From NCBI GenBank assembly GCA_009777515.1, contig WRLR01000013.1, positions 1 to 55,083 on the forward strand: a DNA stretch of 55,083 nucleotides, written 5' to 3'. Shown piece after piece: positions 20,772 to 50,253 of this stretch. Origin of the DNA: Oscillospiraceae bacterium. Lineage in GTDB: Bacteria > Bacillota > Clostridia > WRLR01. Numbering within the stretch: the stretch's first letter is position 1; each line of letters opens with the position of its first letter. The position numbers were made by a program, and so were the translations under genes. Below the pieces are notes generated by a model that saw only the letters and a program-made list of their open reading frames with translations, had not been told where the DNA came from and made no database searches.

Positions 20772-20805
20772 CAGGGCCTCCCATTTAACAGATCGGGAGG
20801 CCCTG
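20772..20805 (+). terminator. Strong stem-loop after importer set B
   Basis: CAGGGCCTCCC (20772-20782) and GGGAGGCCCTG (20795-20805) form a perfect 11-bp stem. No T run follows directly, so the termination mode is uncertain; position and strength fit an operon end. Confidence 0.55.
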
Positions 20806-21051
20806 GTCGCGCTCAACACAGCGCGCAGCATGACGCTTTACGTATATTGGCATCTTTGAGCGCCCTATTGTCCCGCAGTGGATGATAAATGGAGTTTAAA
20901 TCAGACTGTATTGCTGTTCCGCCAAATTATCTTGGTTATGTAAATGGTCCATAATTATCCGCTAATTATAATTATATACAAATGTAATTATATATTCATT
21001 AATTATTTATTTAAGCTAACTAATATTAGTATTGCATTTGATATTTTCACA

Positions 21052-21060
21052 TGCTATAAT
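21052..21060 (+). promoter_or_regulatory. Extended -10 promoter of the candidate RNA gene
   Basis: TGCTATAAT is a perfect extended -10 element. The -35 position 17 bases upstream (TTGCAT) is weak, as is usual for extended -10 promoters. Transcription would start near 21066. Confidence 0.5.
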
Positions 21061-21065
21061 GCCCC

Positions 21066-21340
21066 GTAAGTGAGGTAAATAAATAGAGCCGCAGTGACCG
21101 TGAGGTGCTAGAACACCACCACGGCGAATGTAGGACACTGTAAACCCAAGCCTACAAACACGGAAACCCGCCACCACGACACTTTTAGTATACTTATTAT
21201 ACCAGTAATAATCAAGCAGACGTAAGGCAGACATCAGGCGCAGCCGTCGTGATGGTTGTATATTAGTGTCGCATAACGCCATATATGCTGATTTTGGCGC
21301 GTAGGCAAGGCATTCATGCCCCCTACGCGCTTTTTATTTT
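21066..21340 (+). ncRNA. Candidate structured non-coding RNA of about 270 nt
   Basis: The segment lies between an extended -10 promoter and a strong terminator and has no credible reading frame on the plus strand. Visible helices: CCGTG-a-GGTG (21098-21107) with CACC-ac-CACGG (21114-21124); TGTAGG (21129-21134) with CCTACA (21151-21156); a long-range stem between 21171-21180 and 21246-21255 with 9 of 10 pairs; and GTATA with TATAC near 21188-21202. I do not recognise it as tmRNA, RNase P, 6S or SRP RNA. It could also be an untranslated regulatory leader, but the next gene starts 200 bases beyond the terminator. Confidence 0.4.
21297..21340 (+). terminator. Rho-independent terminator
   Basis: GCGCGTAGG (21297-21305) pairs with CCTACGCGC (21322-21330), with an inner GGCAT/ATGCC helix, followed by TTTTTATTTT. 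It ends the candidate RNA. Confidence 0.85.
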
Positions 21341-21546
21341 GACCTCCCGCATACCCGGCGGGCGGGCATAACCCCCTTTTGCCGACGGCATTTTAATGAA
21401 TCCTTAGACAAATATTTATACTGAGGAGTAGGTTATTAAGAAAGGATTGAAATGTTTTTAAAATTTATAAAGCCGCCTTGAACAGTCTGTGTATAAATCA
21501 AAAAATAATTATTTGATCAATTAATTTTTTGAGGAGGCAAATCTAA

Positions 21547-24500
21547 GTGTATAACTATCAATTTATTAAACTCTTTGTAGTCTTTTATATTATTTCATGC
21601 ATATTTACCATTATACCGCAAAATGTCATTGCCAATGCAGCGAGCCAAGGCCTGTTCATAGATATCGAAGGTGGGGAATACTATGCGGACGCCGCAGATA
21701 TTTTAGCAAAACTACGTATTTTACAAGGTTACCCTGACGGCACTTTTGGTGCGAATAGAAATATAACTAGAGCTGAAATTACTGCTGTTGTTTTAAGGGC
21801 TTTAGGACTAGAAGATGAGGCTGGTCGATTGGCGGGAACGACGTCATATGATGACGTCGCGAGTAATCATTGGGCAAGCGGGTACATCAACGTAGCCACT
21901 GATCTAGGCATCATACAAGGAGACGGTGATGGTACGTTCCGCCCTGAAGACAATGTTAAGTATGAAGAAGCTATTAAAATGGTTGTAGAAACCGTAGGAT
22001 TAGGCGAAGACGCTCTCCAGTCGGGCGGCTGGCCTGACGGTTATATTGACGTAGCTAAGGAAAATGGCATTATTGATAATGTTCCAGGGGCTAAAGGCAA
22101 CACATCCGTTCGAGGCGATGTCGCACTCATGACATATCAGGCTCTATTGTCTCAGGTGACTGCGCCGACAGTATCATTGGCTGGGGGGGAGTACACATCC
22201 GAGCAAAAGGTCCGGCTTTTAACGACTGTAAGAAATTCAGTTATATACTACACATTGGACGGTTCTGTTCCTACAACACGCAGCTCAAGATATAGAAGCG
22301 AGCTGACATTGAAGGAAACGACTACCCTTAGCGCAATAGTCGTGAGACATGGGCTTTTGGCAAGCAGTGTACTCACAGCAAGGTACGTTATAAATATTCC
22401 ACCAGTTCTGCCTGCTCCTACCCCAGTTGTGAATATTGTCAGCACTGGCGGGGGCGGGGGCGGAGGTGGCGGGGGCGGCGGCGTATCGACACCGACACCA
22501 ACCCCTGGTGGTGGTGGCGGCGGATCGACACCGACACCGACGCCAACCCCTGGTGGTGGTACAGGACCGACAATCAATGTCCTTACGGAATTCCCATCGG
22601 GCAACACGCGCAGCAACTTCGTTGATATAACTTATACCGCTACACCAGGCATCGGCGCCAGCATTTCCGAGGTGTACTATAAAATTAACAATGGTATAGG
22701 AGAGTATATTTATTTAACAGGCGGCGGCGGGATAACCGCAAAAGGCACTCTGGGGACAGGCCGCGTCATGCTCCTACCTGGCGAAAACAGTATTGTGTTT
22801 ACAGCAAAAGACTCAAATGGCGATACGGGCAATTTTGATGTTATCAACCATCCATTTTATGATTTTGGATCGACTCCCGATTATGAAGTGGGCTTCATAG
22901 AGGCTCTGCCGAGCAATCCAGAATTGTTATTTGCGACCAATAGGATTGTCGTTTTTGCGAAAATAGGCGCCACGGACGCGCAGGTAGAGGAGGCTGTCGC
23001 AACAGCGGGAGGTGCAGTAATTGGCCAGATAAACATATTAGGCAAGTACATCGTTCAAGTCCCTGCTAGCAGTGCGCCTGAATTGACAGCTTTATGTGAA
23101 AGCCTTATGGTTGCGTACCCAAGCATATTTGATTCCGTTCTGCTTGATATAATCGAGGAAGTGGACGCCGGGTCCGGATCAATATTACACACAAACGATC
23201 CGTGGTGGGACACAAGCCAATGGGGGTTAGATGCCATTGACGCCCCGATAGCTTGGTCCGAATATAGCGAGTATCTACACGATATAAAAGTGGGAGTCGT
23301 TGATAATGGTTTCAAGTACTCCCATGAGGACATAGGCGTCCCCTCCAGCAACATATCCAACTTGGACCGCGCTGACCAAAATCACGGAACGCACGTAATG
23401 GGGACGATCGGGGCGATTCATAACAATAATAAAGGCCTGGCCGGGGTAATAGATGTTAGCCGTGGTTCTTTGTATGGTTTTGACGCTTTTGACATAGACG
23501 AGACGTTTTGGGGCATTACAATTGAACGCGGCGCCTACGCGTCGACGCAAAAAATACTCGAAGGCTTGGCTTGGAATGTAGCAAACGGGGCAAAAGTCAT
23601 TAATTTTAGCCTTGGATCAAGCGGCGCGACGGGGACATACGACGGATACACGATAGCCTTGAATAGGCTTCTTATGCAAGGGTACGATTTTATCGTTGTA
23701 CAAGCTGCCGGTAACAGCGCCGAGGATGCTAATATGGCCGGCGTGTTTGCGTATGTAAATGAACCTGATCTGCGAAAAAGAATAATCACCGTCGGAGCCT
23801 CTGATGTTAATGGAGATATGGCATATTTTTCCAACTATGGTCCTAGGGTTGATGTTGTTGCTCCCGGCGTCGGTATTTACAGCAGTTTCGCAAACAGTGA
23901 TTCCGCGTATAGCAGCATTTCAGGTACTTCCATGGCTGCGCCACATACAACCGGAGTTACCGCACTTGCATGGTCTGCCAATCCTGGCTTAACAGGTACG
24001 CAAGTAAAGGAGATTGTCATTGACTCGGCGAATCTCTTCGGGCGCAGGATCACTGATACAAGAAGCGGCCTTCCGGCTGAATCAAGGGATAGATCGTACG
24101 GCGAAATCAATGCAAAGGCGGCTGTTGAAATAGCAATTGGCGTCACCCATGAAAATGGTCGGCTCGCGGGACAGGTCGTAACCGCTATGGCCAACGGGTC
24201 AGACGGCCCTGCCATCGGCGGTGCATTGATCACTTTGCATTCCGGTTCAACTAGCCCTGCGATAAACTCTGTCACATCCGATGCCGAGGGCCACTATGTC
24301 ATGGAAAATATCATTGTTGGTGAATATTTTCTTGAGATAGCAGCCGAAGGCCACATCCCTGAAAGGTTCTTTATTAATATTGAAGCAGACCTGACGACGC
24401 ATATACACCGTTTAAGAGCGGTTCCGAGAAGTATTGAGGATGGAACAGTCAGCGGCAGCATTATAAATGCATTCTCCGGCGCTATGATCAATGACGAAAT

Positions 24501-25416
24501 AACGCTGATATTCCGCAGGGGTATTGATATAGGCGGCACGGGCAATATTGTTCAAACCATTGTAACGTCAAATGGGTATTATAGTGTCGAACTCCCGGCT
24601 GGTAATTATACTGTGACGGCGTCTGGCAACGGATACATAAATACAAGCGCTTATGTTTATTCATTTGGTGGTGCTTCATTGAGTAACCAAGACATAGTCA
24701 TATCACCTACGTTTGCAAGCGGAGGCGAGGGCGGCGTAAGAATTGTTTTAACATGGGGCGCGACGCCTTGGGATTTAGATTCTCATTTGCGCGGACCTAC
24801 TCCAGAGGGGTATGACTTCCATGTATATTATGCAAATATGAGCTATAGACACGACAATCAGGTTTATGCCAGCCTAGACGTTGATGATACAACCAGTTAT
24901 GGGCCTGAAACGATTACAATTAGCAATTTAGTTAATGGTAATTATAATTATTTTATACATGACTTTACAAACGGTTGGGTTACGAATAGCGAAGCCCTAC
25001 GAAATTCACAAGCGGTTGTTAGGATATATAGTGAGAACAATGAATTGCTCAGGACGTTTAACGTTCCAACGAGCGGAGGCGCAAGCATCGTATGGCATGT
25101 TTTTACTCTCTTAGTGTCGGACGGGCATTATACGATAGTGCCTGTTAACACTATGAATAATAATATAGTAAATACAAGCGATGTAGGATTTGATATTTTA
25201 ATGCTTGATGCCATGTTAGCAATTGAAATGGAAAATGATGAAATAATCCCTTCTGTAGTGATGGATGTTGAGGGCATGGCAGAAATATCTGATATATTTA
25301 AATCAAAAAATATTAAAGAATCAGATATCAATATTCCAACTGAATCCATCATCGAATTAGAGCCTAACATATTAAGTGAAATTGAGTTTGATGACATTAT
25401 TGATGAAGCAGCATAA
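21547..25416 (+). CDS. SLH-domain subtilisin-like (S8) cell-surface protease
   Basis: A 1289-residue exported protein. Residues 1-33 form a signal peptide. SLH modules occupy about 37-88, 98-150 and 160-200 and should bind secondary cell-wall polymer. A chitobiase/FN3-like domain (205-282) and a Gly/Pro/Thr linker (299-340) follow. The S8 domain holds Asp586 (VVDNG), His613 (NHGTHVMG) and Ser795 (GTSMAAP), so the triad is intact. Behind it lie two carboxypeptidase-regulatory-like domains and a YfaP-like domain (WDLDSHLRGP). The start codon is GTG with GAGGAGG nine bases upstream. Base composition is more AT-rich than in the sugar locus before it. It probably processes surface or environmental proteins. 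Confidence 0.88.
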   Translation: MYNYQFIKLFVVFYIISCIFTIIPQNVIANAASQGLFIDIEGGEYYADAADILAKLRILQGYPDGTFGANRNITRAEITAVVLRALGLEDEAGRLAGTTSYDDVASNHWASGYINVATDLGIIQGDGDGTFRPEDNVKYEEAIKMVVETVGLGEDALQSGGWPDGYIDVAKENGIIDNVPGAKGNTSVRGDVALMTYQALLSQVTAPTVSLAGGEYTSEQKVRLLTTVRNSVIYYTLDGSVPTTRSSRYRSELTLKETTTLSAIVVRHGLLASSVLTARYVINIPPVLPAPTPVVNIVSTGGGGGGGGGGGGVSTPTPTPGGGGGGSTPTPTPTPGGGTGPTINVLTEFPSGNTRSNFVDITYTATPGIGASISEVYYKINNGIGEYIYLTGGGGITAKGTLGTGRVMLLPGENSIVFTAKDSNGDTGNFDVINHPFYDFGSTPDYEVGFIEALPSNPELLFATNRIVVFAKIGATDAQVEEAVATAGGAVIGQINILGKYIVQVPASSAPELTALCESLMVAYPSIFDSVLLDIIEEVDAGSGSILHTNDPWWDTSQWGLDAIDAPIAWSEYSEYLHDIKVGVVDNGFKYSHEDIGVPSSNISNLDRADQNHGTHVMGTIGAIHNNNKGLAGVIDVSRGSLYGFDAFDIDETFWGITIERGAYASTQKILEGLAWNVANGAKVINFSLGSSGATGTYDGYTIALNRLLMQGYDFIVVQAAGNSAEDANMAGVFAYVNEPDLRKRIITVGASDVNGDMAYFSNYGPRVDVVAPGVGIYSSFANSDSAYSSISGTSMAAPHTTGVTALAWSANPGLTGTQVKEIVIDSANLFGRRITDTRSGLPAESRDRSYGEINAKAAVEIAIGVTHENGRLAGQVVTAMANGSDGPAIGGALITLHSGSTSPAINSVTSDAEGHYVMENIIVGEYFLEIAAEGHIPERFFINIEADLTTHIHRLRAVPRSIEDGTVSGSIINAFSGAMINDEITLIFRRGIDIGGTGNIVQTIVTSNGYYSVELPAGNYTVTASGNGYINTSAYVYSFGGASLSNQDIVISPTFASGGEGGVRIVLTWGATPWDLDSHLRGPTPEGYDFHVYYANMSYRHDNQVYASLDVDDTTSYGPETITISNLVNGNYNYFIHDFTNGWVTNSEALRNSQAVVRIYSENNELLRTFNVPTSGGASIVWHVFTLLVSDGHYTIVPVNTMNNNIVNTSDVGFDILMLDAMLAIEMENDEIIPSVVMDVEGMAEISDIFKSKNIKESDINIPTESIIELEPNILSEIEFDDIIDEAA

Positions 25417-50180: not shown

Positions 50181-50253
50181 GCGCCATTAGCTCAGTTGGT
50201 AGAGCAATTGACTCTTAATCAATGGGTCCCGGGTTCGAGCCCCTGATGGCGCA
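50181..50253 (+). tRNA. tRNA-Lys (anticodon CTT)
   Basis: The acceptor stem GCGCCAT pairs with ATGGCGC, followed by discriminator A. The D loop AGCTCAGTTGGTAGAGC, the anticodon loop CTCTTAA with CTT, and the T loop GGGTTCGAGCCCC are all normal. CCA is not encoded. It is a single tRNA gene with its own terminator. Confidence 0.97.

What the first reader, a model, noticed from the sequence alone, without database searches (positions are those of the whole stretch)
21052..21340. Possible new structured RNA gene between the sugar locus and the SLH protease
An extended -10 promoter (TGCTATAAT), a 270-nt stretch with several helices including a long-range 9-of-10-pair stem, and a strong terminator enclose no reading frame. 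I cannot match it to common RNAs. It is isolated from both neighbours by its own signals, so it is more likely an independent RNA than a leader.
Basis: partly seen in the sequence, partly recalled or inferred. Interest (0 to 1): 0.65.

Follow-up and report, generated by a model that had tools for sequence, protein, structure and literature searches.

The report
Antisense RNA switch on opposite strand
The spotted region does hold a real, undescribed structured RNA gene, but it lies on the opposite strand from the one proposed: a cloverleaf-shaped antisense RNA, found in many copies across Bacillota, that probably switches off transcription of the gene downstream by pairing with its leader through fast-changing loops.

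Summary
The region is a real RNA locus, but the strand was misread. A paralogue elsewhere in the genome and covariance-model searches gave 63 distinct homologues in Bacillota genomes and prophages. None matches Rfam. In the core helices, departures from Watson-Crick pairing are 101 A.C against 6 G.T, so the structured RNA is on the minus strand (about 21180-21075), where it folds into a closed three-hairpin cloverleaf (window z -4.6, against -1.6 on the plus strand). A minus-strand promoter just downstream of the core was found by unrestricted search in all 63 (61 with a 17-bp spacer). The plus strand behaves as an attenuated leader: it has its own promoter and terminator, and the terminator's 5' arm covaries with the hairpin-4 arm that the antisense RNA would cover. 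The hairpin loops are near saturation in difference between otherwise near-identical paralogues and carry kissing-loop signatures. Best explanation: a chromosomal and prophage family of antisense-RNA-controlled transcription attenuators, working like those of plasmids pT181 and pIP501 but with different targets (DUF6809, Spo0E-like, SymE, recombinases, IS110). Antisense RNA, promoter and structure are strongly supported. The attenuation step, and the SLH protease as the target in the window, are inferred. No RNA-seq was available.

The parts
21075..21180 (-). Antisense RNA: cloverleaf (closing stem plus three hairpins) ending in a U-rich tail
   Evidence: Minus-strand fold -43.7 kcal/mol, z -4.6; strand test 101 A.C against 6 G.T; consensus fold of 41 antisense sequences -38.2 kcal/mol, 31 pairs, 22 with changes on both sides. 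Ends inferred from promoter spacing and U tract, plus or minus a few nt.
21187..21215 (-). Antisense promoter: -35 TTGATT (21215-21210), 17-bp spacer, -10 TATACT (21192-21187)
   Evidence: homologous position and spacing in 61 of 63 relatives.
21032..21060 (+). Sense promoter: -35 TTGCAT (21032-21037), 17 bp, extended -10 TGCTATAAT (TATAAT 21055-21060)
   Evidence: Most relatives with enough upstream sequence have one; the own-genome paralogue's is weak.
21067..21340 (+). Sense leader transcript from inferred start to terminator
   Evidence: Inferred from promoter and terminator.
21088..21096 (-). Closing stem P2 of the antisense RNA, one strand; pairs with 21171-21180
21098..21124 (-). Hairpin P3 with hypervariable 6-nt loop (21108-21113, CTAGAA on plus, TTCTAG on minus)
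   Evidence: Covariation in 7 of 10 pairs; loop difference 0.52-0.71 per site between close paralogues in most groups.
21129..21156 (-). Hairpin P4 with variable loop; its plus-strand 3' arm GCCTAC (21150-21155) is the antiterminator arm
21161..21170 (-). Hairpin P5
   Evidence: 3 of 3 pairs covary.
21301..21306 (+). GTAGGC in the terminator 5' arm, complementary to GCCTAC 21150-21155 (antiterminator pairing)
   Evidence: the pairing covaries across lineages.
21296..21340 (+). Sense intrinsic terminator (GGCGCGTAGG / CCTACGCGCT, then T tract)
21072..21083 (+). P1 5' strand (GAGGTAAATAAA), pairs with 21333-21346 (TTTATTTTGACCTC)
   Evidence: Cognate duplex -11.8 against -7.2 kcal/mol with other lineages' 3' strands.
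21547..25416 (+). Downstream SLH-domain subtilase, candidate regulated gene
   Evidence: Pfam Peptidase_S8 and SLH; regulation inferred only from position (465 nt after core start, like the small ORFs 417-480 nt after it in other long-leader copies).

Best explanation
The locus is an antisense-RNA-controlled transcription attenuator. A minus-strand promoter (TTGATT-17-TATACT) makes a cloverleaf RNA of about 105 nt that is the exact complement of the first half of a plus-strand leader. In the leader the 3' arm of hairpin P4 (GCCUAC) can pair with the 5' arm of the terminator (GUAGGC), which lets RNA polymerase read through. When the antisense RNA docks by loop-loop kissing (P3 and P4 loops) and pairs with the leader, that arm is taken, the terminator forms and transcription stops. 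Loop sequence sets which antisense RNA recognises which leader, so many copies can coexist without cross-talk. Shown by sequence: the strand, the structure, the antisense promoter, loop hypervariability, and the terminator and its covarying alternative partner. Inferred: transcription of both strands, kissing, pairing-induced termination, and the regulated gene in the window (the SLH protease at 21547).
For: Homologues: 74% paralogue in own genome; models R1-R3 find 16 of 58 genomes in the Ruminiclostridium order, 12 of 391 in the class, 4 of 399 in the phylum, plus named hosts. Covariation: 145 cells changed on both sides against 44.8 shuffled. Strand: 101 A.C against 6 G.T; antisense consensus fold -38.2 against -21.8 kcal/mol. 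Antisense promoter: free search of the 80 nt 3' of the core gives mean score 14.1 against 6.8 shuffled and 6.0 on the other strand; 61 of 63 have a 17-bp spacer, 59 TATAAT and 4 TATACT, at a nearly fixed position; repeated in six loci not used before. Attenuator: terminator 5' arm complementary to P4 3' arm with compensatory variants (CCUACAUG/CAUGUAGG, CCAACAA/UUGUUGG, CCGUACAA/UUGUACGG, GCCUAC/GUAGGC). Loops: P3 loop divergence 0.52-0.71 against 0.014-0.08 in the rest of the core in most paralogue groups; YUNR on one strand or the other in 47 of 62 against 20.4 expected, maximum 34 in 2000 shuffles; commonest loop CGCCAA/TTGGCG, the latter being the natural kissing loop named in PMC3753616.
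Against: No transcript data. In the window the downstream gene is about 210 nt past the terminator and may have its own promoter. The own-genome paralogue C45 has a weak sense promoter. Several SymE/IS110-linked copies (L106, L117, L027, L023) have no clear GC-rich terminator in the first 345 nt. In most Ruminiclostridium copies the antiterminator pairing has a bulge, and averaged over 55 copies the longest pairing is only modestly better than shuffled (6.2 against 5.0). Loop variation alone could also reflect relaxed constraint.
Confidence: 0.75

Rival explanations
1. The antisense RNA acts on the sense mRNA mainly at translation or stability, as a type I toxin-antitoxin-like module (RNase III cleavage or Shine-Dalgarno control), not by attenuation.
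For: SymE-type ORFs (a type I toxin family) follow the RNA in 13 of 63 copies; in the Ruminiclostridium copies the Shine-Dalgarno GGAGGG is in a hairpin with CCCUCC that overlaps the P1 3' strand.
Against: The antisense RNA does not overlap the ribosome-binding site or ORF; the conserved covarying element downstream is the terminator arm. No toxin-like ORF in the window.
Confidence: 0.15
2. The minus-strand cloverleaf RNA is an independent trans-acting small RNA whose loops pair with other mRNAs; the plus-strand features are secondary.
For: Structure and promoter are strongest on the minus strand; the own genome has two copies and no DUF6809 gene.
Against: Covariation of the terminator arm with P4, covarying P1 and plus-strand promoters in most copies make sense only if the plus-strand leader matters.
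Confidence: 0.08
3. A plus-strand riboswitch or protein-binding leader for the downstream gene (or a plus-strand stand-alone RNA, as first proposed).
For: Terminator, alternative pairing and Shine-Dalgarno hairpin resemble riboswitch platforms.
Against: G.U asymmetry puts the structured core on the minus strand; loops hypervariable; conserved minus-strand promoter inside the leader; weak plus-strand fold.
Confidence: 0.04

Closest known systems
pT181 / pIP501-type antisense-controlled attenuators of plasmid replication genes
   Same: Antisense promoter inside a leader, small structured antisense RNA with kissing loops, terminator with an alternative antiterminator partner.
   Different: Chromosomal and prophage copies, several per genome with different loops; closed cloverleaf; targets are DUF6809, Spo0E-like, SymE, recombinase or IS110 genes, not a replication initiator; no Rfam match.
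ColE1 RNAI and IncB/IncI/IncFII antisense RNAs
   Same: Three hairpins or kissing hairpins; the loop TTGGCG used by natural loop-loop regulators (PMC3753616) is, as CGCCAA/TTGGCG, the commonest loop here.
   Different: Those act on a primer RNA or on translation; here the target is a terminator-bearing leader.
SymE-SymR and other type I toxin-antitoxin loci
   Same: Antisense RNA opposite the leader of a SymE-family ORF in some copies.
   Different: Most copies have other genes; here the antisense RNA covers only the leader; toxicity not tested.
raiA / ModT RNA (RF03072)
   Different: No match in this genome.

Membership tests
pT181/pIP501-type antisense attenuator (mechanistic class) | Antisense promoter directed into the leader | tested here: met
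   Found in all 63; 61 with 17-bp spacer; six further loci agree
pT181/pIP501-type antisense attenuator (mechanistic class) | Leader terminator with alternative pairing to the antisense-covered region | tested here: met
   covarying, though bulged or short in some lineages
pT181/pIP501-type antisense attenuator (mechanistic class) | Antisense RNA raises termination | not testable with these tools
   Needs in vitro transcription or reporters
pT181/pIP501 plasmid replicon | Controls a plasmid Rep gene | tested here: not met
   Downstream genes are DUF6809, Spo0E-like, SymE, recombinases or IS110; no similar DNA in the plasmid collection
Any Rfam 15 family | Match at gathering score, or E up to 0.1 in the homologue loci | tested here: not met
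   two weak hits lay away from the RNA
raiA RF03072 | Covariance-model match | tested here: not met
   None in own genome; positive in one relative
Type I toxin-antitoxin (SymE-SymR) | SymE-family ORF downstream | tested here: inconclusive
   Met in 13 of 63 copies, not in the window
Type I toxin-antitoxin (SymE-SymR) | Protein toxic without the RNA | not testable with these tools
   Needs expression in a host
IS110 bridge RNA | RNA encoded with an IS110 recombinase | tested here: not met
   IS110 near only 4 of 63 copies

The most novel reading that the evidence does not exclude
A previously undescribed, widespread family of natural, mutually insulated antisense-RNA transcription switches, carried on chromosomes and prophages, in which diversifying selection on two kissing loops creates a private recognition code for each copy, and which has been attached to sporulation regulators, SymE, recombinases and transposases.
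Probability: 0.65. Interest if true: 0.8.

Novelty: new variant of a known kind. Interest (0 to 1): 0.7.

Why it matters
[quoted passage not shown] This family offers dozens, with up to nine differently looped copies in one genome. It also gives a regulatory handle on uncharacterised DUF6809 proteins, Spo0E-like phosphatases and mobile-element recombinases, and explains a 'noncoding RNA' that annotation misses because it lies opposite a leader.

Tried and rejected
Rfam at gathering and relaxed thresholds: nothing. raiA: absent. DNA similarity in plasmids and phages: none. The third BLAST hit (G005) is a 26-bp chance match inside a coding gene. DUF6809 as an obligate partner: rejected, absent from own genome, and other genes follow the RNA elsewhere. 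IS110 bridge RNA: rejected on linkage. Pairing of the P3 loop with the P4 loop in the same RNA: rejected by eye, because copies with the same P3 loop have unrelated P4 loops. Plus-strand riboswitch: rejected by the G.U asymmetry. Literature searches for DUF6809, SymE/IS110 RNAs and chromosomal antisense attenuators found no description; the held library is only the open part of PubMed Central.

Full report
Observation. The extended -10 (TATAAT 21055-21060) and the terminator (21296-21331 plus T tract) are present, and no known RNA family matches. As a plus-strand RNA the region is not unusually structured (z -1.65).

Homologues. The own genome has a second copy, 74% identical, on another contig. 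Two-sequence model R1 gave distant matches in two genomes of the class. Model R2 (5 sequences) gave 1-5 copies in 16 of 58 genomes of the order of G059, which contig names and lengths identify as Ruminiclostridium sufflavum. Model R3 (35 sequences) gave 12 of 391 genomes in the class and 4 of 399 in the phylum. A pattern scan gave named hosts including Ruminiclostridium papyrosolvens, Pseudobacteroides cellulosolvens, Maledivibacter halophilus, Lucifera butyrica and Paenibacillus ferrarius. Seven matches are on viral (prophage) contigs. After removing duplicates, 63 distinct sequences were compared. E-values from these models are rough, and the sequences are related by descent.

Structure and strand. 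The 25 core pairs are formed in 92.6% of cells, with 145 doubly changed cells against 44.8 in shuffles and at most 26 when the partners are slid. The decisive test is strand asymmetry: a G.U pair on one strand reads as A.C on the other. Over 61 RNAs the core helices hold 1401 Watson-Crick cells, 101 A.C, 6 G.T and 16 others. The constrained RNA is therefore on the minus strand. RNAalifold agrees: -38.2 kcal/mol with 31 pairs on the minus strand, -21.8 with 16 pairs on the plus strand. The window alone shows it too: -43.7, z -4.6 against -23.8, z -1.6. The minus-strand fold is a closed cloverleaf followed by a tail that averages 57% T.

Antisense promoter. The models cover only the core, so the flank is an independent test. 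A free search of the 80 nt 3' of the core, minus strand, found in every sequence a sigma-A-like promoter pointing back into the core: 61 of 63 with a 17-bp spacer, -10 TATAAT in 59 and TATACT in 4, -10 at core +100 to +110 in 61. Mean score was 14.1 against 6.8 (sd 2.2) for dinucleotide shuffles and 6.0 for the plus strand of the same DNA. Six later loci behave the same. In the window it is TTGATT-17-TATACT, already listed. The scoring matrix was my own approximation of the sigma-70/sigma-A consensus.

Leader and attenuator. Most copies also have a plus-strand promoter upstream and a GC-rich terminator downstream. Its 5' arm carries a motif complementary to the 3' arm of P4, and the two change together: CCUACACG/CGUGUAGG, CCUACAUG/CAUGUAGG (L116), CCAACAA/UUGUUGG (L031), CCGUACAA/UUGUACGG (G017 copies), GCCUAC/GUAGGC (window and paralogue). 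The long-range helix P1 also covaries (cognate -15.4 against -10.7 kcal/mol between lineages). In copies close to an ORF the Shine-Dalgarno lies in a hairpin that shares bases with P1.

Loops. Among paralogues that are otherwise near-identical (0.014-0.08 differences per site), P3 loops differ at 0.52-0.71 per site; the own-genome pair is less extreme (0.33 against 0.107). Loops fall into two classes that are reverse complements of each other, C..AA and UU..G (41 of 62; 2.6 expected after shuffling), which is expected if either strand of a kissing pair may carry either form. YUNR U-turn motifs are in 47 of 62 on one strand or the other (20.4 expected). That such a motif marks antisense/target loops is from my own knowledge of the field, not from a paper read here. 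The commonest loop, CGCCAA/TTGGCG, includes the loop 5'-TTGGCG-3' reported for natural loop-loop regulators in PMC3753616. Only 1 of 80 same-genome pairs share a P3 loop; random pairs share 32 of 1953, so this shows saturation rather than avoidance.

What is controlled. Downstream genes differ: DUF6809-like (Pfam PF20648, weak), Spo0E-like (PF09388), SymE (PF08845), serine recombinases, IS110 (PF01548), and uncharacterised small ORFs. Own-genome copies have no DUF6809. In the window the first gene is the SLH subtilase, 465 nt after the core start, similar to the 417-480 nt seen in other long-leader copies. That it is the target is a guess from position.

Mechanism, known and inferred. By analogy with pT181 and pIP501, where antisense RNA induces attenuation of transcription (PMC5415839), the antisense RNA would occupy the P4 arm and let the terminator form. 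Sequence supports each element; expression, kissing and termination are untested. I therefore call it a new variant of a known kind: the working principle is that of plasmid attenuators; the RNA family, its chromosomal and prophage spread, its multiplicity and its targets are not described in anything I could search.

Noticed in passing
L003 1470-1740 (G000:C45): Second copy of the module in the same genome, ahead of a 48-aa membrane ORF and a protein kinase gene; terminator hairpin almost identical to the window's.
   Followed up: partly
L134 1500-3092 (G658): A copy of the RNA precedes a small ORF and a TnpB/Cas12-like ORF (C-terminal CxxC zinc ribbon, by eye); no family search was run on it.
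   Followed up: no
L015 2467-10685 (Ruminiclostridium sufflavum): The module, a DUF6809-like ORF and two large serine recombinases sit next to three tyrosine integrases (by eye) and a phage holin and amidase: a nested mobile-element junction.
   Followed up: partly
L091, L093, L102, L107, L108, L110, L118, L121 (MAG CTSoil_080): One soil Bacillota MAG carries at least nine copies differing almost only in loops, some ahead of SymE ORFs.
   Followed up: partly
L132, L133, L135-L137 (G766 with 8 copies, G804 with 3): In the G766 and G804 copies examined, a small ORF (MTDYxKMYFQLAAKVAD...) with no Pfam match follows the RNA about 475 nt after the core start.
   Followed up: partly
L055, L059 (G178): Two copies carry an insertion of about 35 nt in hairpin P5, moving the antisense promoter to core +136/+137 without changing its 17-bp spacer.
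   Followed up: no
window 20776-20806: Strong hairpin AGGGCCTCCC...GGGAGGCCCT just after the sugar-binding lipoprotein gene, probably its terminator, though without a clear T tract.
   Followed up: no
window 50181-50253: The only Rfam hit in the window: an ordinary tRNA gene.
   Followed up: no
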